Below are positions 12,897 through 36,344 of a DNA stretch of 37,573 bases, piece after piece; position 1 is the first letter of the stretch; each line of letters begins with the position of its first letter. Origin of the DNA: Anaeromyxobacter sp. (GTDB lineage: Bacteria; Myxococcota; Myxococcia; Myxococcales; Anaeromyxobacteraceae); assembly GCA_025360965.1 (NCBI GenBank), contig JANYBC010000226.1, positions 1 to 37,573 on the forward strand. Direction: 5' to 3'. The notes beneath the pieces are model-generated. The model worked only from the letters and a program-made list of their open reading frames with translations. It was not told the origin of the DNA and did no database searches. Made by a program: the position numbers and the translations under genes.

Positions 12897-12965
12897 GCGG
12901 GCTCCTGGGCGGCGAGGCCGGCATCATAGTGGAGGCCGGCCCGCCCGGCGCGTGACCTCGACGGC

Positions 12966-12997: not shown

Positions 12998-13003
12998 TTC
13001 CCC

Positions 13004-13348: not shown

Positions 13349-13356
13349 GGCGGGCT

Positions 13357-13794
13357 TCAGCGGCCCCTCGCGGCCTGCCCGAGCCGCTTGGACGCGAGGT
13401 GGCCAGCGAGCACGTCGTGGACGCGCAGGACCACATCGGCGACCTTGAAGGGCTTGCTCACGAAGTCCTTGGCGCCGGCCCGCAGCGCTCGGTGCCAGTG
13501 CTCCGGCTGGGCGCTGACCACCATGACCGGCAGGTCCGTGGACTCCTCGCTCCCCTTGACCACCTTGAGCCCCTCCATCACCTCGAAGCCGCTCATGCCC
13601 GGCATGTTGAGGTCGAGCAGGATCAGGTCGTAGTGGTTCTTGCGGTGGAGCTCGCACACGGTGACGGGGTCGAGCGTGGAGTCGACCGAGCCATATCCCT
13701 CCGCGCCCAGGACGTTCTTCAGCAGGAGCAGGTCGGATGGCAGATCGTCAACGATCAGGAGCTTGGCGTGGTGTATCTCAGCTGAACTGATCAT
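13357..13794 (-). CDS. Stand-alone response-regulator receiver protein
   Basis: This 145-residue protein is almost only a CheY-like receiver domain. KLLIVDDLPSD holds the acidic pair, YDLILLDLNMPGMSGFEV the phospho-acceptor Asp, VMVVSAQ the conserved Ser/Thr position and AKDFVSKPF the Lys. A short C-terminal helix (LASKRLGQAARGR) follows, with no DNA-binding or enzymatic output domain. Start ATG 13794 is preferred to ATG 13848, because the longer form would begin inside the strong hairpin at 13821-13860. No histidine kinase gene is in the window, so its partner is unknown. It lies downstream of the ice-binding gene on the same strand. Confidence 0.85.
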   Translation of the reverse strand: MISSAEIHHAKLLIVDDLPSDLLLLKNVLGAEGYGSVDSTLDPVTVCELHRKNHYDLILLDLNMPGMSGFEVMEGLKVVKGSEESTDLPVMVVSAQPEHWHRALRAGAKDFVSKPFKVADVVLRVHDVLAGHLASKRLGQAARGR

Positions 13795-13820
13795 GTGTGG
13801 ATCTCGTCCGATGGTCGAAG

Positions 13821-13860
13821 GCCCTGCCGCGATGAGCGGGAGGCTCATTCACGGCAGGGC
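13821..13860 (-). terminator. Strong two-part hairpin after the ice-binding gene
   Basis: GCCCTGCCG (13821-13829) pairs perfectly with CGGCAGGGC (13852-13860). Inside it ATGAGC (13832-13837) pairs with GCTCAT (13843-13848) around a five-base loop. The structure begins 14 bases after the stop of the ice-binding gene, where a terminator is expected. There is no U-tract on either strand, so it is a hairpin-type terminator or mRNA-stabilising element. Confidence 0.55.
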
Positions 13861-13874
13861 GTCCGGACTGGGAA

Positions 13875-14705
13875 CTACGGAGCAGGCTGCGTGACCGCGT
13901 TCATCTGCAGGGTCACGGCGGTCTGCGCCAGCAGCCGGCCGTTGACCGAGGCGCCGGTGTTCACGGCGATCAGCGTCTTGGCCAGCACCACGCCCTCGAG
14001 GTGAGCGGTGGTCCCGATGGTGACGGCGCCGGCGACCTGCCAGAAGATGTTCTTGGCCTGCGCGCCTCCGGTCAGCGTCACCCGGGTGGCGCTGGCCTGG
14101 TCCATCGTCCCCGCCACCTGGAAGATCCAGACGTCGTTCGGGCCACCCGCCAGGGTGACGTCGGTCGAGATCATCAGGCCGGTGCCCCACTTGTAGAGGC
14201 CGGGCACCAGGGTGAGCCCGCCGATCTCGCCAGCGCCCAGCTCGGTGAAGTTCGGAGAGACCCGCCCCTGGGCATCCAGGTAGGCGATCTCCATGTCGCC
14301 GATCGAGGCGGTGAGCGTGGTGGCGTCGTTGATGGCGCAGGGGAGGGGTCCGGCGGCGTCGACCACGTAGATGTTCCCGGTCACTTCACCGCAGGTGAGG
14401 AGGAGGGCGGCGCCGGTGATGGGGCTGGTCCCGACGTCGCCGGTGATGGCCGAGGCGTAGACGTCGGTGATCCCGGTCTTGCTCAGGATGGCGAAGGTGC
14501 CGGCGGTTCCGAGGCGGACGGCGGCGCCGACCGGCTCCACCGGGGTGGCGCTGAGCGTGCGGTTCTGGCGGTGCGACAAGGCGTTCATGAGCGCCGCGCT
14601 GCCCTGGGTCTCAGGGTTGGTCGGGTCGGCCCCGCACGCGCTCAGGGACATGATGAGGACTGCGGCTGCGGCGGCGGACAAGCTCAGCTTCTTCTTCAAG
14701 AACAT
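13875..14705 (-). CDS. Ice-binding-like lipoprotein (DUF3494 family)
   Basis: This 276-residue protein begins with a basic, hydrophobic lipoprotein signal ending at Cys24 (SAAAAAVLIMSLSAC). The mature part is a DUF3494 beta-solenoid: VRLGTAGTFAILSKTGITDV, ITGDVGTSPITG, LVPGLYKWGTGLMISTDVTL, GGPNDVWIFQVAGTM, AQAKNIFWQVAGAVTIGTTAHLEG and a closing ASVNGRLLAQTAVTLQMNAV. Characterised members bind ice or act as adhesins; in soil bacteria the true ligand is often unknown. AGGAG precedes ATG 14705. The lipid anchor suggests outer-membrane surface location. It sits between a receiver-only protein and a sigma-54 activator, which may control it. Confidence 0.88.
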   Translation of the reverse strand: MFLKKKLSLSAAAAAVLIMSLSACGADPTNPETQGSAALMNALSHRQNRTLSATPVEPVGAAVRLGTAGTFAILSKTGITDVYASAITGDVGTSPITGAALLLTCGEVTGNIYVVDAAGPLPCAINDATTLTASIGDMEIAYLDAQGRVSPNFTELGAGEIGGLTLVPGLYKWGTGLMISTDVTLAGGPNDVWIFQVAGTMDQASATRVTLTGGAQAKNIFWQVAGAVTIGTTAHLEGVVLAKTLIAVNTGASVNGRLLAQTAVTLQMNAVTQPAP

Positions 14706-14751
14706 GGTGCTCCTGGTGGTAGGGATGGGTGGATCACCCTCGGCTTCCCAT

Positions 14752-14765
14752 GCGACATCCATGCC
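14752..14765 (-). promoter_or_regulatory. Candidate sigma-54 promoter for the ice-binding gene
   Basis: On the minus strand GG (14765-14764) and GC (14753-14752) are separated by exactly ten bases in CGGCATGGATGTCGCAT, the invariant spacing of -24/-12 promoters. Other consensus positions match only partly. It would start transcription about 35 bases before the ATG, and the adjacent divergent gene encodes a sigma-54 activator. Confidence 0.28.
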
Positions 14766-14789
14766 GGACGGCCAAACGCCATAAGCCTA

Positions 14790-14854
14790 GGAATTTCGGA
14801 TCATTCCTCAGAGGGGCGGCGACGAGGTACTGGTCTACCCACCATATTCATGGT
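14790..14854. promoter_or_regulatory. AT-richer divergent intergenic patch with two short inverted repeats
   Basis: Between the ice-binding and sigma-54-activator genes lie GGAAT(8)ATTCC (14790-14807) and ACCAT(4)ATGGT (14841-14854) in sequence clearly less GC-rich than the surroundings. Either could be an activator or operator site. The five-base arms are short, so this is only suggestive. Confidence 0.25.
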
Positions 14855-14877
14855 ATGCACGCCATAGCTGCCGTCCC

Positions 14878-16272
<1,395 letters not shown>

Positions 16273-16273
16273 G

Positions 16274-16360
16274 CTCACCGTCAACTACGACCTCCGCGCA
16301 AACCAGCTGCTGATGACGAGCCTCCTCGACGCCCGCGGCGGTAGCGACGCTTCGGGCTGA
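16274..16360 (+). other. Possible C-terminal gene remnant in the gap after the sigma-54 activator
   Basis: The 96-bp gap between the activator and the thioesterase contains a 28-codon stretch open to TGA at 16358-16360, reading LTVNYDLRANQLLMTSLLDA then RGGSDASG. The alternating pattern looks like a beta-strand C-terminus, but there is no start codon and no usable homology. In DNA this GC-rich, short open frames occur by chance. Confidence 0.15.
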
Positions 16361-16368
16361 CGTCGGTC

Positions 16369-17127
16369 TCAGTCCCGCGCCACCCAGGAGGTGCGGGCCC
16401 GCGCCAGCGGCTTGCCGTCCTCCTCGCGAACCAGCTCGTGGAGCATGGCGCCCTCGCCGTCGGGCGCAGAGCGCGACAGCACGGTGTGACCCAGGGTGGT
16501 CTCGGCGAGGAATTGCACGTCGAGCGCCACCAGCCGCCGGGTCCGCCAGCGCGCCTCCTCGATCGCCTCGAGCGCCCAGCCGATGTAGCTGGCGTTGGTG
16601 ACGTGGAGGTTGGCGTCGATGTCGGCGAAGCGGACCTGGAAGCGCCGGTCGATGGTCGGGGCGGCGAGCGCAGGGAGCGGTGCCGACGGCAGCGGCAGGA
16701 CGTGCTCGGTCTGGGCGTGGCGCTCGGGCGGCAGCAGCCGGTTGGGGCGGCTCGGCCGCCGGGTGGCGAGGTCCATGACGAACCAGGTGGTGAGGGCCCG
16801 GCCCACCTCGACGCCGTCGCGCCAGAGCCGGAAGTCGCGCAAGGCCGCCAGCCGGTCCAGCCCGGACGGCCAGGTCTCGACCACCAGCGAGTCGCCCATG
16901 CGGATGGCGGCGTCGAGCACCAGCCGCTGCCGCGCCAGCACCCAGGCGAGCCCGCGCTCCCTGAGCTGGCCGACGCCGAAGCCGAGCGCGGCCGCCGAGC
17001 GCCCGGCCGCCTCTTGCAGGTAGCCGGCCAACGCCGCCGGCTGGAGCAGCCCGAAGGCGTCGGCGTCGAAGCTCTGGACGGTGAAGGGTGCGCGGGTGGC
17101 GCCCAGGAGCGACCCGTCCGCGGTCAT
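16369..17127 (-). CDS. Acyl-ACP thioesterase-like double hotdog protein
   Basis: This 252-residue protein matches the FatA/FatB-like acyl-ACP thioesterase family with two hotdog domains. The N-terminal half has [28 protein letters not shown] and [15 protein letters not shown]; the second half has [27 protein letters not shown], whose D-x-N-x-H-V-x-N wording is the family active-site segment. It would release free fatty acids from acyl-ACP or hydrolyse another acyl thioester. The ATG overlaps the serC stop (ATGA), so it is translated in the serC operon. The metabolic link to serine synthesis is not obvious. Confidence 0.82.
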
Positions 17128-18248
17128 CCCTTCTTCGCGAACTCGCCCATGAAGGCGGCCAGCTCGTCGATCCAGCCCGGCTCCACCGCGTTGTAGGCGG
17201 AGACCCTGATGCCGCCCACCGAGCGGTGCCCCTTCAGGCCGACCATCCCCTTGCCCTTGGCCTCCTTGACGAACCGCTCCTCGTCGGCCTCGGTGGGCAG
17301 CCGGAAGACCACGTTCATCACAGAGCGGCTCTGCTTCTCGACCGGGCACTTGAAGTAGCCCGGGTTGCCGTCGATGGCGCCGTAGAGGACGCCGGCCTTC
17401 TTCCGGTTGCGCGCCTCCATGGCGGGGAGGCCGCCCAGCCCCTTGAGCCAGCTGAGCACGTTGCGGATCATGTAGATGCCGAAGGTGGGGGGCGTGTTGT
17501 AGAGCGACTTGTTCTCGGCCGGGGTACGGAACTGGAAGATCTTGGGGATGTCCTTGCGTCCCTGCTCGATGAGCGCCTTCGCCATCACCATCACCACCAC
17601 GCCGGACGGGCCGATGTTCTTCTGGGCCCCGGCGTAGAGCAGGCCGAACTTCGAGACGTCGACCTTCTTCCAGAGGAAGTCGCTCGACATGTCGGCGATG
17701 AGCGGCGCGCTGGTGGCCGGGAAGGCGCGCGCGGCGCTGACGTCGAACTGGACGCCGTGGATGGTCTCGTTGGAGGTGAGGTGCAGGTAGGCGGCGCCGT
17801 CGGCCGCCTTGACCTCGCCCGGCGCCGGGGCGCGGACGTAGCTCTTCTCCTTGCCGTCGCCGGTGCCGGTGCTGCAGGCCACCCGCACCGAGCCGCCCAG
17901 CATGGCGGTGGCCAGCTTGGCCTCGGAGACCGCCTTCTCGCTCCAGGCCCCGGTCACCACGTAGTCGGCGCTCCCGCCCTTCTGCACCAGGTTCATGGGG
18001 ATCTGGGCGAAGAGCTGGGAGGCGCCGCCCTGCACGAAGAGCACCTCGTGGGTGTCGGGGACGCCGAGCAGCTCCTTCATGAGCGCGATGGCCTCGTCGT
18101 GGCAGGCCTCGTACTCCTTGCCGCGGTGGCTGTGCTCCATCACCGACATGCCGCTCCCGGCGAAGTCGAGGAACTCCAGGCGGGCCCGCTCGAGGGCGGG
18201 GAGGGGGAGCGCGGCGGGGCCGGCGTTGAAGTTCTTCACGCGGTTCAC
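17124..18248 (-). CDS. serC: Phosphoserine aminotransferase (SerC)
   Basis: This 374-residue class V aminotransferase converts 3-phosphohydroxypyruvate and glutamate into phosphoserine and 2-oxoglutarate. It opens with [17 protein letters not shown], has the [15 protein letters not shown] segment, [47 protein letters not shown] and the PLP Lys in [12 protein letters not shown]. The C-terminal [14 protein letters not shown] contributes substrate-binding residues. Length fits the family. It is the first gene of a two-gene operon with the thioesterase and diverges from the CitE-like gene across 93 bp. Confidence 0.95.
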
Positions 18249-18341
18249 GAGGCACCTCGGTGGTGAGGGTGGGAGGAGGGCATTCTAGGAGAATTGCCGG
18301 CGGGCTACCATGCGACCGGCCGTCCCACCTGAGGAGCCCCC

Positions 18342-19217
18342 GTGTCCCTGTCGATCGTCCGCCCGCGCCGCAGCGCCCTCTACATGCCCGGCTCCAACGC
18401 CCGGGCGGTGGAGAAGGCCCGCACCCTCGCCGCCGACGTGCTGCTGCTCGACCTCGAGGACGCGGTGGCCCCGGCGGCCAAGGAGCAGGCCAGGCGGCTG
18501 GTGGTCGAGGCGGTGCAGGCCGGCGGCTTCGGCCGGCGCGAGGTGGTCATCCGGGTGAACGGCGCCGGCACGCCCTGGGGGGCCGCCGACCTGGCCGCCG
18601 CCGCGCGCTCCGGCGCCGACGCGGTGCTCCTGCCCAAGGTCGAGTCGGCCGCGGAGGTCTGCCGGGCCGAGCAGGAGCTCGGCGCCGCCGGGGCCCCCGC
18701 CAGGCTCGCCCTCTGGGCCATGATCGAGACGCCGCGGGGGGTCCTGGCGGCGCCGGCCATCGCCGCGGCCACGCCCCGCCTCGCCTGCTTGGTGGCCGGG
18801 ACCAGCGACCTCGTCAAGGAGCTCGGCGCCCGCCACACGCCAGGCCGTGCCGAGGTGCTCACCGCCCTCTCGCTGATCGTGCTCTCGGCCCGGGCCTACG
18901 GCCTCGCCTGCCTCGACGGCGTCCACCTCGACCTGACCGACGAGGCCGGCTTCGAGGGGCAGTGCCGCCAGGGGCGCGACCTCGGCTTCGACGGCAAGAC
19001 GCTGATCCACCCCAGGACCATCGCCGCCGCCAACCGGGCCTTCGCCCCGGGCGCCGAGGAGGTCGAGGCGGCGCGGCGCATCCTGGTGGCGCACGCCGAG
19101 GCGGAGTCCTTCGGCCAGGGCGTGGTGGTGGTGGACGGGCGGCTGGTGGAGAGGCTGCACGTCGAGGCGGCCCGGCGCCTGCTGGCGCTGGCCGAGGCAG
19201 TCTCGGACCAAACGTGA
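18342..19217 (+). CDS. CoA ester lyase (CitE / HpcH-HpaI family)
   Basis: This 291-residue TIM-barrel protein starts RPRRSALYMPGSNARAVEKA, followed by LLLDLEDAVAP, VIRVNG, VLLPKVESAAEV (metal-binding Glu), WAMIETPRGVL and KTLIHPRTIAAANRAF. These are the hallmarks of CitE-like enzymes such as malyl-CoA or citramalyl-CoA lyases, which cleave or form CoA esters with Mg2+. Without citrate-lyase partner genes nearby, a stand-alone malyl/citramalyl-CoA or other beta-hydroxyacyl-CoA lyase role is more likely than citrate lyase. The GTG start follows GAGGAG. Confidence 0.88.
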   Translation: MSLSIVRPRRSALYMPGSNARAVEKARTLAADVLLLDLEDAVAPAAKEQARRLVVEAVQAGGFGRREVVIRVNGAGTPWGAADLAAAARSGADAVLLPKVESAAEVCRAEQELGAAGAPARLALWAMIETPRGVLAAPAIAAATPRLACLVAGTSDLVKELGARHTPGRAEVLTALSLIVLSARAYGLACLDGVHLDLTDEAGFEGQCRQGRDLGFDGKTLIHPRTIAAANRAFAPGAEEVEAARRILVAHAEAESFGQGVVVVDGRLVERLHVEAARRLLALAEAVSDQT

Positions 19218-19287: not shown

Positions 19288-20625
19288 ATGGCCACCGCAG
19301 CAGCGAACGCCGCAGCGCCGACGGTCGAGTACGAGTTGGAGGCCGGCTCGCACGGGCCAGGAGACCTCGAGGTCCTGAAGTTCGAGGCCGAGGAGCGGCT
19401 CTCCACCCCCTTCGAGCTCGACGTCACGGTGATGATCCGGCCCGGGGTCGACGTCGACGTGCCGGCGCTGCTCGGCGAGCCGGCCGCCCTGCACGCCGAG
19501 GCCGGGGACGGCGAGGTGCGCGACCTCCACGGGATGGTGGCGCGGGTGCGGGCCTGGGAGGAGGGCACCGGCGAGGACCGCAAGCGCCTGCGGCTCACGG
19601 TGGTGCCGAGGCTCTGGCGGCTCGGAAAGATGGCGCGCAGCCGGATCTTCCAGAACCTCACCGTCCCGCAGATCGTCGAGAAGGTCCTGAAGGAGGGTGA
19701 GGTGGAGCACCGGCTCTCCCTGGCGGCCACCTACCCGGAGCGCCGCTACTGCGTGCAGTACCGCGAGTCGGACCTCGACTTCGTCTCCCGCCTGCTCGAG
19801 GAGGAGGGCATCTTCTACCTCTTCGAGCACGCCGCCGGCGGCCACGTCATGGTGCTGGGCGACGCGCCCTCGGCCCACCAGCCGCTCCCCGGCGGGGCCA
19901 GGCTGGCCTTCCGCGAGAAGAGCAGCCTCAGCGCCGACGCCGACCACGCCGACGCCTTCTCGGCCGTCCGCGAGCTGCGCTCCGGCAAGATGACCCTGCG
20001 CGACTACGACGACCTGCGCCCGGCGCTCGACCTCACCGCCAGCAAGGCGTCCGGCGGGGACGAGGAGAAGCTGGAGGTCTACGACTACCCGGCCGGCCAC
20101 CACGAGCCGAAGGTCGGCGAGGCGCGGGCGCGCGTCCGCCTCGAGGCCGAGCGGGCCTGGGCCCTGCAGCACGCCGGCTCGAGCACCTGCAAGCGGCTGG
20201 TGCCCGGGTACGTCCTGGAGCTGGCCGACCACCCGCTCCCCGAGCTGAACGGGGAGTACGTGGTGCTCTCGGTGACCCACCGGGGCCACCAGCGCGGCCG
20301 GCTCGCCGCGGTCGAGGCGCACGCGCTCGACAAGGAGAGCTACCGGAACCAGTTCACCTGCCTGAAGAAGGACGTCCCCTTCCGGCCGGTGCGCCGCACG
20401 CCGCGCCCGGTCATCCCGGGCGCGCAGACGGCGGTGGTGGTGGGGCCGTCTGGCGAGGAGATCCACACCGACGAGCACGGCCGGATCAAGGTGCAGTTCC
20501 ACTGGGACCGGGAGGGGAAGCACGACGACCGGGCCAGCTGCTGGATCCGGGTGGCCCAGTCATGGGCCGGGCCGGGGTGGGGCGCGCTCTACCTGCCGCG
20601 CATGGGCCAGGAGGTGGTGGTCTAG
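19288..20625 (+). CDS. vgrG: VgrG1 (TssI) spike protein, part before an in-frame amber codon
   Basis: VgrG trimers form the puncturing spike of the type VI secretion tube. This part covers the gp27-like base (YELEAGSHGPGDLEVLKFEA; RLWRLGKMARSRIFQNLTVP; QYRESDLDFVSRLLEEEGIF) and most of the gp5 OB fold (GPSGEEIHTDEHGRIKVQFH, then SWAGPGWGALYLPRMGQEVV). It ends at TAG 20623-20625, codon 446, inside the OB fold. The neighbouring VgrG2 has Arg at the same place. The frame continues open for 310 more codons, so this is a nonsense interruption, not a natural end. ATG 19288 follows a strong GGGAGGGAG site. If translated alone it would lack the spike. Confidence 0.85.
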   Translation: MATAAANAAAPTVEYELEAGSHGPGDLEVLKFEAEERLSTPFELDVTVMIRPGVDVDVPALLGEPAALHAEAGDGEVRDLHGMVARVRAWEEGTGEDRKRLRLTVVPRLWRLGKMARSRIFQNLTVPQIVEKVLKEGEVEHRLSLAATYPERRYCVQYRESDLDFVSRLLEEEGIFYLFEHAAGGHVMVLGDAPSAHQPLPGGARLAFREKSSLSADADHADAFSAVRELRSGKMTLRDYDDLRPALDLTASKASGGDEEKLEVYDYPAGHHEPKVGEARARVRLEAERAWALQHAGSSTCKRLVPGYVLELADHPLPELNGEYVVLSVTHRGHQRGRLAAVEAHALDKESYRNQFTCLKKDVPFRPVRRTPRPVIPGAQTAVVVGPSGEEIHTDEHGRIKVQFHWDREGKHDDRASCWIRVAQSWAGPGWGALYLPRMGQEVVV

Positions 20626-21555
20626 TTCCTGGAGGGCGACCCGGACCAGCCGCTGGTCACCGGCAGCGTATACAACGGCGCCAACCCGCCGCCCCTGGCG
20701 CTGCCCGGGGACAAGACGCGGAGCACGCTGCGCACCGAGAGCAGCCCGGGCGGCGGCGGCTCCAACGAGCTGCGCTACGAGGACGCCAAGGGGAGCGAGG
20801 AGATCTACCTCCACGCCCAGAAGGACCTGAACGTGGTGGTCGAGAACGACCAGACCGCCACCGTGGGCGGCAACCAGAAGCTCGACGTGCAGGGGGACCG
20901 GAGCCGGTCGATCGGCGGCAGCCAGGTCCTGCAGGTGACCAAGGACGACACCAGCACCATCGGGGGGAGCCAGACCCTGGCGGTGGGAGCCAACCGGACC
21001 ACCACGGTGGGCGGGGCCCACGCGGAGACGGTGGGCGGGGACCAGTCGGTCTCGGTGGGCGCGACCCAGACCGTCACCGTGGCGATGGCTTCGGTGGAGT
21101 CGGTCGGGCTCGCCAAGGCGCTCAACGTGGGCGGCGCCTACGCGGTCACCGTGGGGGCCGCCATGAACGAGATCGTGGGGGGGCTCAAGTCGGAGGAGAT
21201 CGGCGGCGCCAAGGTGGAGGTGGTGGGCGGCAAGAAGACCGAGACGGTGGCCGGCTCGCGCACCATGAAGGTGGGGGGTGACCTCTCGGAGACGGTGGGC
21301 AAGTCGCGCACCCTCAAGGTGGGCAAGGACCTGACCGTCAACGTCGGCGGCAAGTTCCAGCAGGCCGTCAAGGACAAGTACACGCTCAAGGCCAAGGAGA
21401 TCATCCTCAGCGCCGACGACCAGTTCACGCTCAAGGTCGGCTCGGCCACCCTGCAGGTGAAGAAGAGTGGCGCCATCGTGCTGAAGGGCAGCAAGATCGA
21501 CATCAAGGCCAGCGGGAACCTGGTGCTCAAGGGCTCGAAGATCACGGAGAACTGA
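20626..21555 (+). pseudogene. C-terminal spike half of the amber-interrupted vgrG1
   Basis: In the same frame right after the [23 protein letters not shown] completes the OB fold and [20 protein letters not shown] leads into a long gp5-type beta-helix built from VGG-containing repeats (for example [18 protein letters not shown]). It ends KGSKITEN with no effector extension. No start codon with a good ribosome site is seen at the break; GTG 20833 would lose the OB strands. The full gene, 19288-21555, would be a normal 755-residue VgrG, so the two parts are one gene separated by a point change, unless the stop is read through. Confidence 0.8.
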
Positions 21556-21556: not shown

Positions 21557-24022
21557 GTGGCCAGCACCGCGCGCATCAGGTTCGAGCTTCAGGTGGGCGG
21601 TCTCGGCGACGCCGACCTGGCGGTCCTGCGCGTCGAGGGGCGGGAGGGGCTCTCCGAGCCCTACGCCTTCGAGGTCGAGGTGCTGCGGCGCGACGGCGAG
21701 CCGCTCGACCTGGAGGACCTGGCCGGCAAGGAGGCCGAGCTGACGCTGCGGCGGCCCAGCGGCGAGGAGCGGGTGGTGCACGGCGAGGCCACCCGGCTCG
21801 CGCTGGTGGACCTGTCGGCCGGCGTGCCGCACTACCGGATCCGCATCGAGCCGCGGCTCTGGCGGCTAGGGCGCACCGCGCGGAGCCGCATCTTCCAGGA
21901 CCAGACCGTGCCCGAGATCGTGGCGGCGGTGCTCGACGAGCACGAGGTGGTGCAGCGCGCCTCGCTCTCCGGCAGCTACCCGAAGCGCGAGTACGTGGCG
22001 CAGTACCGCGAGACCGACCTGGCCTTCGTGTCGCGCCTGCTGGAGGCCGAGGGGATCTGGTACCGCTTCGAGCACGGGCCGGGGCGGCACGAGCTGGTGC
22101 TGGGCGACTCGGCCAGCGCCGTCGCCGATGGCGGCACGCAGGTGCCCTTCCGGCTGGACACCGGCCAGGGCGAGGACAAGGAGCACCTCTCCCGGCTGGA
22201 GCGGACCCGGCGGGTGGCCACCGAGGCGGCGACCCGGCGCGACTACGACTTCGTGAAGCCGGCGCTCGACCTCACCGCCAAGGAGGGCAGCGGGGCGCTG
22301 GAGGACTACGAGTACCCGGGCGGCCAGCTGGATCCGGGCGATGGCAAGCGGCTGGCGAAGCTGCGGCTGGAGACGCTCCAGTTCGGGGCGGCGACCTACG
22401 ACGCCACCGGAAGCAGCCTGGCGGCGCTGCCCGGCGCCACCTTCGAGGTGGCCGACCACCTCGACGGAACCATGAACGTGAAGCTGGTGGCGGTGCGGGT
22501 GGTGCACGAGGGGACGCAGGGGCGGCCCGGCACCGGCGGCGGCGCGGTGGAGGCGACCTACCAGAACCGGCTCACCGCTATCGAGGCGGCGCTCCCCTAC
22601 CGGCCGCGGCGGCGGACGCCGATGCCGCGGGTGGCCGGGATCCAGACCGCCACGGTGGTGGGGGCCTCCGGCGAGGAGGCCCACGTCGACCAGCACGGCC
22701 GCGTCAAGGTGCTGTTCCACTGGGATCGCGCCGGCGCCAGGGACGACACGTCGAGCTGCTGGGTGCGGGTGGGGCAGGCCTGGGCCGGCGCCGGCATGGG
22801 CGCCAGCTTCGTGCCGAGGGTCGGGCAGGAGGTGGTGGTCCGGTTCCTGGAAGGCGACCCGGATCGGCCGCTGGTGGCCGGCGCCGTCTACAACGGCCAG
22901 AACCCGCCGCCGGTGGCGCTGCCGGGCGACAAGACCAGGTCCACGCTGCGCACCGACTCGAGCCTGGGCGGCGGCGGTTCCAACGAACTGCGGCTGGAGG
23001 ACTCCAAGGACGCCGAGGAGGTCTGGCTCCACGCGGAGAAGGACCAGAACTCGGAGATCGAGAACGACTCCACTCGGAAGGTCCAGGCCAACGAGGCCCT
23101 CGAGGTGGCGAAGGACCGGCAGAAGACCGTGCTCGGCAAGCAGTCGCTGCGGGTCGGCGTCAACGACGGCGGCGACGTGGGTCAGAACAGGACCCTCACC
23201 GTGGCCGGCGCCCGGTCCACGGCGGTGGGCGTGGCCCACGCCGAGCAGGTGGGCGCGGCGCAGACGGTGACCGTGGGCGGAAACCAGGCGGTGAGCGTGG
23301 GGGCGGCCAGCATGCAGAGCGTGGGGCTGGCGGCGGCGCTCACGGTCGGTGGCGCCTACCTCGTCAACGTCGGCGGCGTGCACAACACGGCGGTGGGCGG
23401 GCTCAAGTCGACGCAGGTGGCCGGCGCGGCGGTGGAGGTGGTGGTCGGGTCGCGAGACGAGACGGTCGGCAAGGATCGGGCTTCGGACACCGGCGGCGGG
23501 GCCGAGCTCGAGGTGGCGGCCGGCGTGGCGCTCGACACCGGGAAGGACGTCACCGAGACCATCGATGGCAAGCTGGAGCTGTCGCTCCCGAAGGCCATGG
23601 CGATGCTGATGAAGGACGGGACCCTGGAGGCCGACACGCTCACCATCATGGTGGGCGGGTCGGTGGCGCTGGTGATGAAGAAGTCCGGCTCGATCGTCCT
23701 CTCCGGCGGCGACGTGACCATCGAGCAGGACGGCGCAGTGACGCTCAAGGGCTCCCAGGTGCAGAAGGACGCCGGGTCCTCGGCCGCCAGCGGGTCGGCC
23801 ACCGTGGCCGAGCTCAAGGCGCTCGATGAGGCGAACAAGGTGGCGCAGGTCACGTTCAAGGACACGCGCGGTGGTGGCGCGCTGGCCGGCCTGGCCTTCA
23901 AGGCGACGCTGCCCGGGGAGTCGCCGCGGGACGGCAAGGTCTCGGGCAAGGGGCTCATCGCCCTGCGCGACGCCAAGCCTGGCCAGTGCGAGATCGAGTT
24001 CGTCAAGCTGGAGGAGGACTAG
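21557..24022 (+). CDS. vgrG: VgrG2 (TssI) spike protein with a C-terminal transthyretin-like tail
   Basis: This intact 821-residue VgrG starts at GTG one base after vgrG1. It has the gp27-like base (residues 1-340), the gp5 OB fold (about 350-450; ASGEEAHVDQHGRVKVLFHW, GQEVVVRFLEGDPDRPLVAG), a VGG-repeat beta-helix (about 495-740), then a 70-residue tail: VAELKALDEANKVAQVTFKD, then GGALAGLAFKATLPGE and a closing CEIEFVKL. The tail reads as a transthyretin/prealbumin-like beta-sandwich. In enteroaggregative E. coli a VgrG tail of this kind binds a phospholipase cargo. Here the next gene is a lipase, so cargo docking is the likely role. Confidence 0.93.
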   Translation: MASTARIRFELQVGGLGDADLAVLRVEGREGLSEPYAFEVEVLRRDGEPLDLEDLAGKEAELTLRRPSGEERVVHGEATRLALVDLSAGVPHYRIRIEPRLWRLGRTARSRIFQDQTVPEIVAAVLDEHEVVQRASLSGSYPKREYVAQYRETDLAFVSRLLEAEGIWYRFEHGPGRHELVLGDSASAVADGGTQVPFRLDTGQGEDKEHLSRLERTRRVATEAATRRDYDFVKPALDLTAKEGSGALEDYEYPGGQLDPGDGKRLAKLRLETLQFGAATYDATGSSLAALPGATFEVADHLDGTMNVKLVAVRVVHEGTQGRPGTGGGAVEATYQNRLTAIEAALPYRPRRRTPMPRVAGIQTATVVGASGEEAHVDQHGRVKVLFHWDRAGARDDTSSCWVRVGQAWAGAGMGASFVPRVGQEVVVRFLEGDPDRPLVAGAVYNGQNPPPVALPGDKTRSTLRTDSSLGGGGSNELRLEDSKDAEEVWLHAEKDQNSEIENDSTRKVQANEALEVAKDRQKTVLGKQSLRVGVNDGGDVGQNRTLTVAGARSTAVGVAHAEQVGAAQTVTVGGNQAVSVGAASMQSVGLAAALTVGGAYLVNVGGVHNTAVGGLKSTQVAGAAVEVVVGSRDETVGKDRASDTGGGAELEVAAGVALDTGKDVTETIDGKLELSLPKAMAMLMKDGTLEADTLTIMVGGSVALVMKKSGSIVLSGGDVTIEQDGAVTLKGSQVQKDAGSSAASGSATVAELKALDEANKVAQVTFKDTRGGGALAGLAFKATLPGESPRDGKVSGKGLIALRDAKPGQCEIEFVKLEED

Positions 24023-25729
24023 ATGGCCGCCCCCAAGGTGCCGTGGTCCGACCTCGTCAAGAAGAAGACCAAGTTCACCGTCGGGGAGCCGAACGAGGTG
24101 GTGGTCCAGAAGGAGGTCATCCCCATCGTCTTCGTGCCCGGCATCATGGGGAGCCGGCTGAAGAAGAACGGCGAGAAGATCTGGGACCCGGACGCCAAGG
24201 GCTTCATGCTCTGGAACTACGGCATGGCCACGGTGGACGCCGCCGACAAGAAGGCGGCCCTGGTCGGCGACACCTTCAACGAGAAACTCCTCGAGCCGTA
24301 CCCGGACGACGCCGAGCACAACCAGAAGTTCTCGGATGGCGACTGGGCCCGCCCATCGACCTGGCCGACCGCCGAGAAGCGCGGATGGGGCACGGTCGGA
24401 TGGGGGACCTACGGCGAGATCCTCCAGAAGCTCCAGGCCGCCGAGACCTGGCCCGCCCCGCTGCACGCCTTCTTCGACTTCCCGGTCTACGCGGTCGGTT
24501 ACAACTGGACAGCCTCGAACCAGGACTCGGGCAAGAAGCTGGCCGACCGGATCACCGAGATCGTGAAGGCCCACAAGGACGCCGATGGCCTGTGCGAGAA
24601 GGTCATCGTCGTGACCCACTCGATGGGCGGACTGGTGACGCGCTGGGCGGTCGAGAAGGAGGGGGCCAAGGAGAAGGTGCTGGGGGTGGTCCACGGTGTC
24701 CAGCCGGCAGTCGGCGCGGCCACCACCTACTGGCGCATGAAGTCCGGCTTCGAGCGCGGCAAGGTGGCCGGCTTCGAACTTCCCAACCCGGCCGCCTGGG
24801 TGCTGGGGACCAACGGGCGGGAGGTCACGGCCCTGCTCGCCTGGATCCCCGGCGGCCTCCAGCTGCTCCCCGGACCCGACTACACCGACAACGCCGGGTC
24901 GAAGGACTGGCTGCGCATCTACGACCACGAGGGCAAGGAGGTCGCCAAGTTCGGCAGTGACGCCCTCACGCAGATCTACACCAACGAGGATCCGCTGGCC
25001 TACTGGCGGCTCGTCGAGAAGTCCTACCTGCTTCCAAAGCCGGTCCAGGACCTTTCGGTAGACGACGCCTGGGGAACCTTCGTGAACTCCGCCGAGGAGG
25101 CGAACGCCTTCCACGTTGAGCTCTCCGGAAAGAAACACCCGGAGACCCAGGTCTTCTACGGTGCCGGCAAGGGCACGCCGTCGTGCGACCGTGCCGTCTA
25201 CAGGGCGGTGCTCTACGGCTGGAAGGACGCCGCCAAGGACGCCTGGTCGATCGCCAAGGTGGTGAAGTTCGTGGCCGTCCCAGGGGTGGGCACTGCGCTC
25301 TCGGTCGGCTTCGAGGTGCTGAAGCGGACCGAATGGTGGCAGTCGCGCGGCGCCTTCAAGGTGCGGGCCCAGACCGCCGACGGCGGCGTGGACGTGGTGC
25401 TGTCACACCCGGCCGACGTGGCCAAGGAGAACGACCAACCGCACGGCCACGGCGCGGGTGACGGCACGGTCCCCGAGTCGTCCGGCAAGGCCTTGAAGCA
25501 ATGTGGCGAGGCGGTGGGGGGAGGCGAGAAGGACGCCAAGGCCTTCGACGGGATAGAGCACGAGCCGGCCTTCCACGCCGACCAGCGCGGCCTGCTCGAG
25601 AAGGCCAAGGACTGGGCCCACGAGCAGGTGGGAGGTCCGAAGAGCGGTCCGCCCGAGGACAACCCGGTGGCGTTCACGGTCGCCTCGGTCAAGCGGCTGG
25701 TACGGCTCAAGATCAAGAAGGCGAAGTGA
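24023..25729 (+). CDS. T6SS lipase effector, LCAT/PGAP1-like alpha/beta hydrolase
   Basis: This 568-residue protein starts directly after the VgrG2 stop, with GGAGGAGGA upstream. Its hydrolase core shows the oxyanion strand IPIVFVPGIMGSRL (residues 33-46), the nucleophile Ser200 in VVTHSMGGLVTRWA, Asp480 in AGDGTVPESSG and His513 or His518 in GIEHEPAFHADQ. PGIMGS with HSMGG is typical of LCAT/PGAP1-like lipases, which act on phospholipids or GPI-like lipids. No signal peptide is present, as expected for a T6SS cargo. The following exported Tli4-like protein supports a Tle4-type antibacterial phospholipase. A segment at 405-430 could form a membrane-binding lid. Confidence 0.82.
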   Translation: MAAPKVPWSDLVKKKTKFTVGEPNEVVVQKEVIPIVFVPGIMGSRLKKNGEKIWDPDAKGFMLWNYGMATVDAADKKAALVGDTFNEKLLEPYPDDAEHNQKFSDGDWARPSTWPTAEKRGWGTVGWGTYGEILQKLQAAETWPAPLHAFFDFPVYAVGYNWTASNQDSGKKLADRITEIVKAHKDADGLCEKVIVVTHSMGGLVTRWAVEKEGAKEKVLGVVHGVQPAVGAATTYWRMKSGFERGKVAGFELPNPAAWVLGTNGREVTALLAWIPGGLQLLPGPDYTDNAGSKDWLRIYDHEGKEVAKFGSDALTQIYTNEDPLAYWRLVEKSYLLPKPVQDLSVDDAWGTFVNSAEEANAFHVELSGKKHPETQVFYGAGKGTPSCDRAVYRAVLYGWKDAAKDAWSIAKVVKFVAVPGVGTALSVGFEVLKRTEWWQSRGAFKVRAQTADGGVDVVLSHPADVAKENDQPHGHGAGDGTVPESSGKALKQCGEAVGGGEKDAKAFDGIEHEPAFHADQRGLLEKAKDWAHEQVGGPKSGPPEDNPVAFTVASVKRLVRLKIKKAK

Positions 25730-26724
25730 CAAGCCGGAGGCGCAGACCGGCCAGGCTGGGTGCGCTGTCGCTGCTGCTGGCGGGGTGGTCGTTCTGGAGC
25801 CAGGCTGAGGCCAGGGAGGTCAAGATGGAAGAAGCGGCGGTCGGGAAGCTCGAGCGGGTGTATGTCGGGCGGTTCTCGCTGGAGGTCCCGGCGGGGGCCG
25901 CGCGGTACGGGGAGGAGTTCCTGGTCCGCAACATCGCGTTGACCGAGACGTCACTGGCCACTCCCGACGCGAAAGGGTGGGGGCTCGAATGGGCCGCTAG
26001 GCGTGCCGCCGTGGAGGGCCTCAAGTCGAGCCGAGTCAATGACCGGGCGCTCAACGGCACGATCACCCTGGACCTGGAACTCGAGCCAGGACGCCACGGG
26101 GTGATGGTGTACCACCACGCTTCAGGATCGGCGATGGTGACCGTCCTGAACTTGCGTCGCGTGGACGGGGTTGGGCTCTGGATGATGCGCGTCGCCGGTG
26201 GCAGCTCCGTGGAGGCAGTCCGCGCCAGGATGGCTGCCGTCGGCCCAGCCTACCAACCCGTCCTCAAGGACCAGCCCCGCCCGAGCGGCGACGTCTTCCA
26301 CCTCCCACGCGGCGTGGTCGCAGCGCCCTTCCAGGAGCAGGAGAAGGCCAAGTCGGTATTCAAGGGAGGTCCCCTGGCCGTGGAGATCAAGGTCCTGATC
26401 GAATCGACCGACGAACCGAAGGGCGGCGGTCTGCTGGCGCGCTTCGGCGAATCGGTGGCCAAGGCCGGCGCGGCCTTTGCGGCCGGCGTTTCGCCGGTCC
26501 GCAGCCGGGGGCGCGCGGTGGCCGGGATGAAGGGCGAGGAGTTCGTGATGCGCGACTCCGAGGCCGGCGACCTCTATTTCATGTGGGAGTTCAAGGGGGA
26601 GGCAGGCTCCGGGAAGCACCCCCGCATCCAGCTCCAGATGATCACCAAGCAGGAGCGGCAGCCGGAGAAGATGGCCTTCTGGGATGCGCTGGTCGACTCG
26701 CTCAAGCCGGCCGCTTCGCCGTGA
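25726..26724 (+). CDS. Exported Tli4-like immunity protein for the lipase effector
   Basis: This 332-residue protein begins at GTG overlapping the lipase stop. A signal peptide (LGALSLLLAGWSFWSQAEA) sends it to the periplasm. The mature protein has KLERVYVGRFSLEVPAGAA, a long middle with ITLDLELEPGRHGVMVYHH, and a C-terminal GMKGEEFVMRDSEAGDLYFM then WEFKGEAGSGKHPRIQLQM. This two-part layout resembles the Tli4_N/Tli4_C family that neutralises Tle4 lipases. Periplasmic location matches the site of lipase attack. The assignment rests on layout, motif wording and position; residue-level proof is lacking. It overlaps the next gene by GTGA. Confidence 0.72.
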   Translation: MTSRRRRPARLGALSLLLAGWSFWSQAEAREVKMEEAAVGKLERVYVGRFSLEVPAGAARYGEEFLVRNIALTETSLATPDAKGWGLEWAARRAAVEGLKSSRVNDRALNGTITLDLELEPGRHGVMVYHHASGSAMVTVLNLRRVDGVGLWMMRVAGGSSVEAVRARMAAVGPAYQPVLKDQPRPSGDVFHLPRGVVAAPFQEQEKAKSVFKGGPLAVEIKVLIESTDEPKGGGLLARFGESVAKAGAAFAAGVSPVRSRGRAVAGMKGEEFVMRDSEAGDLYFMWEFKGEAGSGKHPRIQLQMITKQERQPEKMAFWDALVDSLKPAASP

Positions 26725-30040: not shown

Positions 30041-30625
30041 TCAGATGAAGACCGGAGTATCGAGGTCCAGGATCTTGAGGCCAGCGGCCTTGGCCTCGGT
30101 CAGCTTGTCGACGAGGTCGGAGCGAACGATATAGGTGCGAGGGTTCTCCTTCAACCGAAAGAGCGTGCGGTCGGGAGGGATCTTCTTCTGGTGGAGGACG
30201 ACACGCTGGAAGCCAAGGATCATGTCGGGCTCCATCGCGCTCCGGTCGTACTCGGACTTCGCGAGGTCGACGCAGTCCACGGTGCCGACCGGATGAACGA
30301 GGAAATAGGGCGCCTTGATCGGGCGCCCCTTCAGATCGAGGACCTGGAGTGGGTAGACCTCGCACGGGTTCGGCTCGGCTGCGAGGAGGGCTCGGACCTT
30401 CTCGGAGACAATGAGCCAGCTCAGGGAATTCGAGATGAAGTCCTCGAGCTTCATCCCCTTGTGCTTGGAGTCGAGGGCCATGGTGGCGTCATCGGGGAGA
30501 TGGCCTGCGAAGGACTTCCCCTCGCCAACCAGGAAGGTCTTGGAGGCGCCCTTTGGATCCCGGTCGATGTAGCCGAACTGAGGGCGACTTGGAACCGTGA
30601 GGACGTAGAAGTCGTACTTGACCAT
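30041..30625 (-). CDS. Imm11/Imm43-like (DUF1629-type) immunity protein
   Basis: This 194-residue protein without a signal peptide begins VKYDFYVLTVPSRPQFGYID. The middle carries LEDFISNSLSWLIVSEKVRALL, then EVYPLQVLDLKGRPIKAPYF, LVHPVGTVDCVDLAKSEYDR, and a TLFRLKENPRTYIVRSDLVD segment near the end. These strand-helix blocks resemble Imm11 (DUF1629) proteins, which protect against polymorphic nuclease toxins. It follows the AHH nuclease gene by 65 bases, the normal place for its immunity gene. ATG 30625 with an upstream AGGA is chosen; longer frames upstream read as non-coding. Confidence 0.7.
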   Translation of the reverse strand: MVKYDFYVLTVPSRPQFGYIDRDPKGASKTFLVGEGKSFAGHLPDDATMALDSKHKGMKLEDFISNSLSWLIVSEKVRALLAAEPNPCEVYPLQVLDLKGRPIKAPYFLVHPVGTVDCVDLAKSEYDRSAMEPDMILGFQRVVLHQKKIPPDRTLFRLKENPRTYIVRSDLVDKLTEAKAAGLKILDLDTPVFI

Positions 30626-30690
30626 GGATGTTCCTGCCATCTTGCGAATCGGGCCAGCCCGGCGCTGGTGGCCGGCGAAGGCCCCGGGAC

Positions 30691-31476
30691 CTAGCCGATC
30701 AGGTTGATCTCGACGCCGGCACCCTTGGCTCGACCCCACTGCTCGAGCTGGTCGTAGAGGCGGGACGAGATCTTGTCGATGTCCTTGCCTGCATTCTCCG
30801 CCATCTTCTTGTCCACCTTGTGCACGTCCCCCTTGCTCTTGTCGAGCGCACTGGCGAGGCTGTCACGCGCCTGCTTGAGCTTCGCCTTCGCGTAGTCGTT
30901 GTAGTGAGGGTGATTGTTGGGGTGGATCGGCCACTTGATGATCTGACCAACCTGCGCCTCTTCGGGCAGCAGCACGATGTTGGCCTTCTCGTTGATGTTG
31001 TACTTGCCAACGACGAGGCAGAGCAGCGGCTTGCGATGAAACTCGTCGTGGTAGAGCCCCTGCTCGAGCGCCGCGCTCGGGATGAGGTGGTGCCACTGGT
31101 GGCGATAGGGGTAATGGGCGCCGCGAGCCTTGGGCTTGAAGTTGGGGAAGGCTCCGGTTGCGCAAGCGTCCACGTCCCAGATGGTCTTCTTCTGCTTGGC
31201 AGGGTCCTTCGGCTGCTGGACTGGCGTCGTGGTCCGGTAGTGGACCTTGCCTTTTACGGTCAGCTTCTTCTTGCTCCCCTTGAGCCCGGTGATGGTGGCC
31301 GGATCGTATTGGCGCGGCGCGGCGTTGTAGTGGGCGGTCCGGTTGGCCTTGGTCTCGGCGTAGCCCTTCTTGTCGTAGTGGCAGTGCGCCTTGCGTTCGC
31401 TGTCGTGGCGAACGATGCAGGCGCCCGCGTCGTGGAACTTCTTGAGGCTGGCCGGAATCTTGATGTGGTTCGCCAC
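30691..31476 (-). CDS. AHH-type HNH/Endonuclease VII nuclease effector
   Basis: This 261-residue lysine- and histidine-rich protein has its nuclease core at residues 120-200: HYPYRHQWHHLIPSAALEQG, a conserved KYNINEKANIVLLPEEAQVG, and IHPNNHPHYNDYAKAKL. WHHLIP plus a later HxxNHxxYN pair is the pattern of the AHH branch of HNH/EndoVII toxins that degrade DNA or RNA. The first 100 residues hold a Cys/His group (CIVRHDSERKAHCH) that may bind zinc. No signal peptide or large delivery domain is present, so it needs a spike partner. The preceding DUF4150/DUF6484 genes and the following immunity genes give that context. Confidence 0.8.
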   Translation of the reverse strand: MANHIKIPASLKKFHDAGACIVRHDSERKAHCHYDKKGYAETKANRTAHYNAAPRQYDPATITGLKGSKKKLTVKGKVHYRTTTPVQQPKDPAKQKKTIWDVDACATGAFPNFKPKARGAHYPYRHQWHHLIPSAALEQGLYHDEFHRKPLLCLVVGKYNINEKANIVLLPEEAQVGQIIKWPIHPNNHPHYNDYAKAKLKQARDSLASALDKSKGDVHKVDKKMAENAGKDIDKISSRLYDQLEQWGRAKGAGVEINLIG

Positions 31477-32002: not shown

Positions 32003-32464
32003 CTACAGCTCCTTGTCACAGCAGAGGCACTTCCCCTTGTCCGCCGACTTCCCCATCGAGATGACCGGGGCCTGCAGCACGGGGAAGGGCGGGGTGTTCT
32101 TGTCGTTGTGGAGCATCAAGTCGAACGACCGCGGCACGTTCTTGCCCTCGAACTGCACGTCGAACGAGTAGTTGACGAACTCGGCCTTGCCCTTGGTCTT
32201 GCTGGAGGCCACGCCGCCTGCGGAGCCGGCCTCGTCGCCAGTGGAGGTGGAGAAGTTGGAGTCCTTCACGCAGACGGGCTGGCCGTCCACCTTGACCTTC
32301 TTGGTCCCCTTGGCCGTGTCCGACGACATGGCGATGTTCGGGTAGGGGATGGGAATCGGCCCGGCCGGGCTGGGCGTCTTGCAGACGTCGGGGAAGGCGA
32401 TGCTGGTGCCGTTGGTATCGGCGTTCACGATGGAGAGCTTGTTCACGCCCACGCTGGTCGCCAT
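32003..32464 (-). CDS. DUF4150 PAAR-like spike-tip protein
   Basis: This 153-residue protein is a PAAR-like tip of the DUF4150 family. It reads MATSVGVNKLSIVNADTNGT, FPDVCKTPSPAGPIPIPYPN, then VKVDGQPVCVKDSNFSTSTG, DEAGSAGGVASSKTKGKAEF and FEGKNVPRSFDLMLHNDKNT. PAAR tips cap the VgrG spike with a metal-binding cone and carry effectors. A Cys-rich tail (KCLCCDKEL) may add a metal site. It sits between DUF2169 and DUF6484 genes, the usual DUF4150 neighbourhood. Small proteins of this type are normally secreted with the spike. Confidence 0.85.
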   Translation of the reverse strand: MATSVGVNKLSIVNADTNGTSIAFPDVCKTPSPAGPIPIPYPNIAMSSDTAKGTKKVKVDGQPVCVKDSNFSTSTGDEAGSAGGVASSKTKGKAEFVNYSFDVQFEGKNVPRSFDLMLHNDKNTPPFPVLQAPVISMGKSADKGKCLCCDKEL

Positions 32465-32497: not shown

Positions 32498-33556
32498 CTA
32501 CGCGCCGACCGCACCCCGGGGCGAGGGGAGGGCCGCCTGCGACCCGGTCCGCACCTCCATGGTGCGCACCTCGGTCGGCTCCCGCCGCAGGGTGAGCTCC
32601 CCACGCCATAGCAGGACCAGCTTGCGGGCGTCTGTGTCGACGATCACAGTGTCGAGCCGGGTGGCGACCAGGGCGTCCTCGAGCCCTCCGCGCTCCACCA
32701 GCACGGTGGGCGCCTCCAGCCCCGGAAGCCGGAAGGCGTAGCCGCCGGTCGGCGTCACCCCGGCCACCACCACCGGCTCGTCGCCGCGCAGGTGGCCGGC
32801 CGCCACCAGGCCGGGAGAGGCGGCGCAGAGGAAGCGGCGGTCGAAGTCCCTGGGCAGGAGCGGCGCGCGCTCCTGCTCCCACTTCTTGTCGTAGGTGCCG
32901 GCGTGCTTCGGCCGCGGCTCCCAGCTCGGCGAGAGGAAGCCGAACCCGGCGGGCGGCGGGCGGTCGCCCCAGCCCTTGAAGGGCCGGGCCGGGTCCTCCA
33001 GGTTGGGGCAGCGCAGCCCCTCCTCGAAGCGGGTGCCGCCCCCACGGAAGCCGACGCCGACCGGGTTGCGCGGCTCGAAGCTGTGCCTGGCCGGATCCGG
33101 GTAGGAGCGGTCCCAGCCGCCAAAGGCCCGCTCCCAAAGGAGCGGGATCTTCTCGAAGGGGACCGCCCGGGTCATCCCCACCGAGCCGACCGACTTGAAG
33201 AAGACCCGGTCGCCCACCACCCGGACCCCCTTCTTGAGCGGGCCGACCTGCAGGGCCACCAGCAGGTCGGCGGTCCCCGGGCGCGGCGCCACCGCGCTGC
33301 CGACCAGCACCACGTCGGTGGCCGGCTTGGGCCAGCCGCACTCCGGCTCGTAGCGGTAGCTGGAGGTCTCCGGCTCGCCCCAGGGCAGGCCGGCCAGCAC
33401 CGGCGGGGTCTGCTCCGCCGCCAGCGTGATCCCGGCCTCGGCGAGATCCCAGCTGCCCTTCACCAGCGGCACCAGCAGCGGGCGCCCTTCTTCGTCGGCC
33501 ACGAAGAGCGGCTCGAAGGCGAAAGGGGTGGCGTTGTCGACGGCGGGGTGGCCCAC
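32498..33556 (-). CDS. DUF2169 T6SS effector-loading protein
   Basis: This 352-residue protein matches DUF2169, proteins next to DUF4150 tips and effectors that are thought to act as adaptors or chaperones. It starts VGHPAVDNATPFAFEPLFVA then LVPLVKGSWDLAEAGITLA; the centre has PLLWERAFGGWDRSYPD, the WE-FGG-D segment typical of the family, then PRNPVGVGFR and LCAASPGLVAAGHLRGDEPV. GTG 33556 is preferred because it gives the family N-terminus; more upstream starts run across the clpV promoter gap. It is the first gene of the minus-strand effector operon, divergent from clpV. Confidence 0.82.
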   Translation of the reverse strand: MGHPAVDNATPFAFEPLFVADEEGRPLLVPLVKGSWDLAEAGITLAAEQTPPVLAGLPWGEPETSSYRYEPECGWPKPATDVVLVGSAVAPRPGTADLLVALQVGPLKKGVRVVGDRVFFKSVGSVGMTRAVPFEKIPLLWERAFGGWDRSYPDPARHSFEPRNPVGVGFRGGGTRFEEGLRCPNLEDPARPFKGWGDRPPPAGFGFLSPSWEPRPKHAGTYDKKWEQERAPLLPRDFDRRFLCAASPGLVAAGHLRGDEPVVVAGVTPTGGYAFRLPGLEAPTVLVERGGLEDALVATRLDTVIVDTDARKLVLLWRGELTLRREPTEVRTMEVRTGSQAALPSPRGAVGA

Positions 33557-33650
33557 GGCCGGGAGCCTAGCACCGCCGAAGGCAGGGGGAATCGCTCGCT
33601 TTCGGGCGCCGGTGGTGATCCGCAGTCGTCCGAGGTGCGTTCCAGCGGAC

Positions 33651-33676
33651 CTTGAGTAATACTCACTGACCTCAAG
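33651..33676. promoter_or_regulatory. Candidate operator in the divergent DUF2169-clpV promoter gap
   Basis: GAGTAATACTC (33654-33664) is a perfect 11-base palindrome, and CTTGAG (33651-33656) pairs with CTCAAG (33671-33676) around it. It is in the 181-bp gap between the two divergent T6SS operons and is AT-richer than its surroundings. A binding site for a regulator of either operon is possible. No cognate regulator gene is adjacent. Confidence 0.33.
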
Positions 33677-33737
33677 CTCTCCCCCCATACGAACGACGGT
33701 TCGCCAGCCGGCGGGGCCGTAGTTCCTCGGAGGCCCC

Positions 33738-36344
<2,607 letters not shown>

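What the first reader, a model, noticed from the sequence alone, without database searches (positions are those of the whole stretch)
20623..20625. VgrG1 is cut by a single in-frame amber codon inside the gp5 OB fold
The frame from 19288 to 21555 is otherwise intact and reads as a complete 755-residue VgrG. At codon 446 a TAG stands where the neighbouring VgrG2 has CGG, and where Glu or Arg is usual; GAG to TAG would be one change. The break removes the needle, so the spike could not form. Options are a recent loss leaving VgrG2 as the working spike, a sequencing error, or read-through of TAG. The lack of any further damage suggests the event is recent or selection is still acting.
Basis: partly seen in the sequence, partly recalled or inferred. 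Interest (0 to 1): 0.7.

Follow-up and report, generated by a model that had tools for sequence, protein, structure and literature searches.

The report
Recently broken type VI spike gene
A stop codon really does cut one spike gene of this bacterium's toxin-injecting machine, and because two other core genes of the same machine also look broken, this is most likely the ordinary early decay of a disused weapon rather than a special recoding trick.

Summary
The TAG at 20623-20625 is real: codon 446 of an otherwise open 755-codon vgrG frame (19288-21555), inside the gp5-type OB fold. It is private to this genome as far as seen: 0 of 55 other full-length VgrG1-class matches in the phylum search have an internal stop, and 40 distinct orthologs have Glu 37, Asp 2, Gly 1 there. 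TAG is an ordinary terminator here (RF1 present, no PylS, no CUA tRNA found). 3 of 17 type VI genes checked are damaged against 0 of 59 control genes; a coding-signal scan of 446 kb found one other likely nonsense codon. VgrG1 shows no excess of amino-acid change on either side of the stop, so the break is recent. Best explanation: early multi-gene decay of the type VI system, a known phenomenon. Consensus error in a 259-contig draft is the main rival; read-through is unlikely.

The parts
19288..20622 (+). vgrG1, upstream part (codons 1-445): gp27-like hub (Phage_GPD) and start of the OB fold; open reading ends at the TAG
20623..20625 (+). in-frame TAG, codon 446 of vgrG1, inside the OB-fold domain
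   Evidence: sense codon in all 40 distinct orthologs compared
20464..20673 (+). OB-fold region of vgrG1 (Phage_base_V match, residues 393-462)
20626..21555 (+). vgrG1, downstream part: rest of OB fold, Gp5_trimer_C (479-590), Gp5_C repeats; not translated from the normal start if TAG terminates
   Evidence: homology to residue 755
21557..24022 (+). vgrG2, second spike gene (48% identical), no internal stop, itself terminated by TAG
24023..25729 (+). alpha/beta-hydrolase (PGAP1/LCAT-like), likely lipase-type effector
26302..26706 (+). Tli4_C domain of the presumed cognate immunity gene (ORF 25501-26724, true start not fixed)
30041..30739 (-). Imm11-family immunity-like gene
30691..31476 (-). 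AHH-family nuclease-like gene
32003..32464 (-). Tox-PAAR-like gene
32498..33787 (-). DUF2169 gene of the type VI cluster
33738..36344 (+). tssH (ClpV), no lesion
   Evidence: TIGR03345, 1131.5 bits
36354..37573 (+). gene beside tssH whose product aligns to the corresponding gene of relatives; runs off the contig end; called FHA gene here from recall
   Evidence: alignment; the name FHA is recalled

Best explanation
The TAG is a genuine, recent nonsense mutation and a terminator. It leaves a 445-residue hub fragment without trimerisation core or needle. It is one of several recent inactivating changes in the only type VI secretion system found in this genome: the sheath gene tssC has two frame breaks and a TAG, and the membrane-core gene tssM has a TAG. 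The system is in early multi-gene decay after loss of use; effector and immunity genes and the other core genes that could be checked are still open. Shown: the lesions in the assembly, their absence in the relatives compared, TAG's ordinary role, recency of the vgrG1 break. Inferred: that the protein is lost, that the machine is dead, the order of events.
For: Stop private to this genome: 0 of 55 other full-length VgrG1-class matches have one (up to five candidates scored per genome); 37 Glu, 2 Asp, 1 Gly in 40 orthologs. tssC broken in three places; tssM TAG at residue 427, inside the IcmF-related_N match 179-435; no second tssC or tssM found. 3 of 17 type VI genes damaged versus 0 of 59 control genes (63.0 kb; Fisher p 0.0097). 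Coding-signal scan: 2 type VI nonsense hits versus 1 in 446.1 kb (p 0.0066). All stops being TAG is expected: 80% of one-step nonsense changes from this codon usage give TAG. vgrG1 branch not accelerated. Multi-lesion type VI decay is documented in classical Vibrio cholerae (PMC8578542, passages).
Against: No reads and no second strain of the species could be examined; the three same-genus genomes held (79, 79 and 98% complete) have no vgrG match. The genome is a 259-contig draft, and the 5' lesions of tssC lie within 200 bases of a contig end. tssA and tssB lie in an assembly gap or are absent. vgrG1 was handed to me as a finding; without it the enrichment p values are 0.043 and 0.084. vgrG2, tssH, tssF, tssG, hcp, tssE, tssJ, tssK (part checked) and tssL show no lesion.
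Confidence: 0.68

Rival explanations
1. Consensus or assembly error: the TAG (and the tssC and tssM lesions) are mistakes or mixed-strain artefacts in a draft assembly; the living cell has intact genes.
For: Draft of 259 contigs; no second genome of the species is held here; the tssC 5' lesions are near a contig end; type VI genes are split over at least three contigs.
Against: At the density seen in type VI genes, about 8.5 nonsense codons would be expected in 63 kb of control genes; none was found. No A or T run of 5 or more, and no G or C run of 7 or more, lies in tssC. The vgrG1 TAG is mid-contig.
Confidence: 0.2
2. Isolated loss of vgrG1, with VgrG2 kept as the working spike of an active type VI system.
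For: vgrG2 and many core genes are open; type VI systems can work with one VgrG (general knowledge, recalled).
Against: The only sheath gene and the only tssM found are broken. In relatives with the tandem (e.g. G004, G009, G016, G021) both members have no stop.
Confidence: 0.05
3. Polymorphic loss: the broken alleles segregate in a population in which other cells keep an intact system, so the state is reversible at population level.
For: The break is very recent; the system is patchy among relatives (25 of 60 genomes, the own one included, have a match).
Against: No population data; several lesions in one genome suggest fixation rather than switching.
Confidence: 0.05
4. Regulated or constitutive read-through of TAG, giving full-length VgrG1.
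For: Frame intact on both sides; three type VI genes each have a TAG.
Against: RF1 present; no PylS; none of 41 tRNAs has a CUA anticodon; 13 of 27 window genes, vgrG2 and tssH included, end in TAG; tssC frame breaks would not be mended by read-through. The tRNA set is incomplete in the draft.
Confidence: 0.02

Closest known systems
Disabled type VI system of classical-biotype Vibrio cholerae (PMC8578542; passages read)
   Same: Several inactivating changes in core genes of one otherwise recognisable system, among them sheath (vipA) and TssM (vasK) genes
   Different: There followed through many strains and tested by killing assays; here one draft genome, no experiment; here a vgrG is also hit
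Decayed vgrG-effector aux clusters of Ralstonia (PMC11481896; passages read)
   Same: Frameshifts, premature stops and other losses in vgrG, toxin or immunity genes; about 23.5% of 1,066 clusters classified
   Different: Those are auxiliary clusters; here core genes tssC and tssM are hit too
Citrobacter rodentium tssM1 rescued by transcriptional slippage (PMC4256274; outline and abstract read)
   Same: A prematurely interrupted core type VI gene in an otherwise recognisable cluster
   Different: There an 11-A run restores the frame; here the lesions include in-frame TAGs and no A or T run of 5 or more exists in vgrG1, tssC or tssM
   Same: 55-68% identical over nearly the whole length, often in a genome that also has a VgrG2-class gene
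   Different: No internal stop in any of the 55 full-length matches

Membership tests
VgrG/TssI spike protein (TIGR03361) | hub plus OB fold in one chain above the curated score | tested here: met
   Frame with X at codon 446 scores 630.3 bits, cut-off 186.35
VgrG/TssI spike protein (TIGR03361) | continuous reading frame through trimerisation domain and needle | tested here: not met
   TAG at codon 446; Gp5_trimer_C begins at 479
Pseudogene by nonsense mutation | orthologs intact, lesion private to one lineage | tested here: met
   0 of 55 other full-length VgrG1-class matches with a stop; 40 of 40 distinct orthologs sense at the site
Pseudogene by nonsense mutation | relaxed constraint after the break | tested here: inconclusive
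   C/N branch ratio 0.64, closest ortholog 0.69; 2 of 96 and 2 of 83 private changes at invariant columns, not raised; probably too recent to show
Functional type VI secretion system | intact sheath (tssB, tssC) and membrane core (tssM) | tested here: not met
   tssC and tssM broken in the assembly; tssB not found, gap or loss
TAG recoding (pyrrolysine or suppressor tRNA) | PylS or CUA tRNA; TAG avoided as terminator | tested here: not met
   tRNA set incomplete
Slippage-rescued type VI gene (as C. rodentium tssM1) | long A or T run at the break | tested here: not met
   no A or T run of 5 or more in the three genes
Split hub/spike pair as P2 gpD + gpV | gene boundary between hub and OB domain | tested here: not met
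   break is inside the OB domain match 393-462; hub match ends at 335; the gpD/gpV comparison is recalled

The most novel reading that the evidence does not exclude
Three core type VI genes (vgrG1, tssC, tssM) are each held off by an amber codon and could be switched on together by conditional amber suppression. This requires the two tssC frame breaks to be assembly errors and a suppressor tRNA to sit in unassembled sequence.
Probability: 0.015. Interest if true: 0.85.

Novelty: new member of a known kind. Interest (0 to 1): 0.22.

Why it matters
If the lesions are real, a type VI system of a relative of Anaeromyxobacter is caught at an early stage of loss, with three broken genes and most others, toxins and immunity included, still open. 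That gives an example of how such weapons are lost, and a caution that reading one gene of a cluster split over contigs can miss the wider state. It does not point to a new mechanism.

Tried and rejected
Recoding of TAG: rejected on RF1, PylS, tRNA and terminator usage. One tRNA of undetermined anticodon (L149:173-248) was read by eye: its anticodon loop holds CTC, no CTA (the script failed). Restart downstream of the stop: the first in-frame start is a GTG at 20833, 70 codons on, with AAGGA shortly before it; it would give a needle without an OB fold, not a P2-type split, so not favoured. Relaxed selection in the C-terminal part: tested and not seen.

A frame-switch scan meant to find indels printed 7 flags of 61 same-strand switches but did not flag the known tssC breaks; I dropped it as insensitive and did not follow its flags. 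The first stop scan missed vgrG1 at its threshold; I lowered the threshold and re-ran it on both sets, then used the same setting for the second control. On the window, C156 and C101 it gave 9 candidates: vgrG1, tssM and 7 that I took as gene boundaries from the neighbouring starts, without a domain check. Of the 7 + 12 control candidates I judged 18 to be gene boundaries or non-coding ends: 15 were in stretches given to Pfam, 3 (L231:92, L295:16200, L295:16206) were judged from sequence alone; L288 gave no domain, and L279 (two stops) and L232 are less sure. One, L222:12176, is a likely real nonsense codon. In the homology controls two flags (L218:15581, L289:754) were taken as stop-to-stop extension upstream of the start. 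Two other VgrG hits with stops in the alignment (L083, L087) have them near its C-terminal end.

Same-species comparison could not be done: one genome per species is held and the three same-genus genomes lack a vgrG match. Structure prediction was not run; it would not bear on the question. Literature searches; only one held paper has Anaeromyxobacter, type VI secretion and VgrG together and it is on Pseudomonas putida (listing only).

Full report
The observation. Window 19288-21555 is one frame of 755 codons and a TGA, broken once, by TAG at 20623-20625, codon 446. With X at the stop, the frame is a VgrG/TssI protein (TIGR03361, 630.3 bits, cut-off 186.35) with hub 35-335, OB fold 393-462 and trimerisation domain 479-590. 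The stop therefore sits in the OB fold and cuts off the trimerisation core and needle. The best-matching solved chains are VgrG structures such as 7q5p and 4mtk.

Where it is. The window is the whole contig C233 of a 3.83 Mb draft in 259 contigs; its genome gave two VgrG matches, vgrG1 with the TAG and vgrG2 without a stop. No name is given, but a same-family genome, G016, has its VgrG on a contig number 252 of 27,278 bases, which is the number and length of a contig of an uncultured Anaeromyxobacter MAG, so I take the organism to be a relative of Anaeromyxobacter.

Private to this genome. Of 60 genomes (own and 59 relatives), 25 have some match; 11 relatives have a full-length VgrG1-class gene (57-68% identity, L003-L013), none with a stop. 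In 195 genomes of the phylum, own included, 61 have a strong match; I count 55 full-length VgrG1-class places other than the window's (874 bits or more), none with an internal stop. That search scored at most five candidates per genome and its list of weaker matches is cut. Two VgrG2-like places in the printed list do have stops, G082:C1:10252290 and G147:C7:242067. At the broken codon, 40 distinct orthologs (from 50 loci, 10 duplicates dropped) have Glu 37, Asp 2, Gly 1.

TAG is a stop here. Of 27 window genes, as I delimited them, 13 end in TAG, 13 in TGA, 1 in TAA; vgrG2 and tssH end in TAG. RF1 is present and whole (486.8 bits, cut-off 423.25). No PylS match was found; the same model rings in 13 of 14 control genomes, over the cut-off in 1. 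Of 41 tRNA places none has a CUA anticodon. No GAA (Phe) or GAT (Ile) anticodon was among them, so the set is incomplete and a suppressor in unassembled sequence is not excluded.

The wider system. The finding changes when the rest of the cluster is read. The only TssC gene found is on contig C156. Compared with four orthologs it has a 2-base loss near codon 50, a TAG just after it, an intact middle part (81% identical to L181 over about 425 residues), and a 1-base loss near codon 477. The only TssM gene found is on C101 and has a TAG at C101:7522, residue 427, inside the IcmF-related_N match 179-435. tssJ, tssK (the part covered by the reference), tssL, tagF (cut by the contig end), hcp, tssE, tssF, tssG, tssH, the gene after tssH (cut), vgrG2, and the PAAR-like, DUF2169 and DUF6484 genes show no lesion (the last three rest on 38-61% identical partial matches). 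tssA and tssB were not seen; tssB was searched for and not found, and in G004 they lie just where the assembly has a gap. Gene names of the cluster in C101, C156 and the relatives, beyond those that a family search named, are mine from recall.

Is it error? Two controls. By homology to a same-genus genome (G003, 0.84 Mb of it fetched), 30 + 29 = 59 non-type-VI genes, 63.0 kb, had no frame break or internal stop after two upstream-extension flags were set aside; 11 of them are in the window. By coding signal, 39 other contig stretches (206.7 + 239.4 kb) gave 19 candidate stops, of which one, a TAG between HisKA and HATPase_c of a histidine kinase (L222:12176), looks like real nonsense. Type VI genes: 3 of 17, as I delimited them, damaged, against 0 of 59 (Fisher p 0.0097); nonsense found by the scan, 2 in 22.3 kb against 1 in 446.1 kb (p 0.0066). 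The scan missed the TAG in tssC, which sits between frame breaks. vgrG1 was handed to me as a finding, so it inflates these numbers; without it p is 0.043 and 0.084. At the type VI density, uniform error would give about 8.5 nonsense codons in the control genes. So uniform error is disfavoured, but local error or mixed strains in these contigs is not excluded.

Why all TAG? From the codon usage of ten window genes, 80% of single-base nonsense changes would make TAG, so three TAGs need no special reason.

When? In a tree of 41 distinct VgrG1 sequences the window's terminal branch has a C-part to N-part ratio of 0.64, against 0.69 for L003, the closest ortholog, and 0.14 to 0.95 among the 14 rows printed. 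Changes at columns otherwise invariant are 2 of 96 and 2 of 83, not above other long branches. A rough neutral reckoning (1 nonsense in vgrG1; 3 in 22.3 kb) puts release from constraint at about 0.005 to 0.017 substitutions per site; this is an order of magnitude, no more.

Mechanism. Translation of vgrG1 most likely stops at codon 446, leaving a hub with a partial OB fold that cannot form the trimeric needle (inferred from domain order). A P2-like two-chain spike is not expected, because the cut is in the OB fold. With sheath and membrane core also broken, VgrG2 and its lipase-type effector would have no machine to fire them. The likely history is loss of use, then accumulation of hits (inferred).

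Known precedents. Classical Vibrio cholerae carries several type VI lesions, in vipA, vasE, vasK and vasN, and the vasK and vasN alleles, put into a test strain, abolished killing (PMC8578542, passages). About 23.5% of 1,066 Ralstonia aux clusters had loss-of-function changes in vgrG, toxin or immunity genes (PMC11481896, passages). Rescue of a broken tssM by slippage at a run of 11 A is known (PMC4256274, abstract and outline), but no such run exists here. The case is therefore a new example of a known kind.

Noticed in passing
L222:12176 (own genome, contig C50): A TAG stands between the HisKA and HATPase_c domains of a histidine-kinase frame; likely a nonsense codon outside the type VI genes.
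   Followed up: partly
codon 446 of vgrG1 (20623) and codon 429 of vgrG2 (22841): The same OB-fold position is acidic in the VgrG1 class (Glu 37, Asp 2 of 40) and Arg in the VgrG2-class rows. Opposite charges in a tandem pair could bear on who trimerises with whom; untested.
   Followed up: no
window 24023-26724 and 30041-31476: Two effector-immunity-like pairs remain open in the broken system: hydrolase with Tli4_C, and AHH nuclease with Imm11.
   Followed up: no
G082:C1:10252290-10254512 and G147:C7:242067-244277: Two VgrG2-like genes in other genomes of the phylum also carry internal stops (TGA and TAA; TGA).
   Followed up: no
window 1-18434 against G003:C14:16925-39319: Much of the left half of the window is syntenic with a same-genus genome in which no vgrG match was found; the synteny ends just before vgrG1, so the type VI region may be an island here or a loss in that relative.
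   Followed up: partly
L149:173-248: A tRNA with an irregular anticodon loop beside tRNA-Glu(TTC); ARAGORN could not assign it.
   Followed up: partly
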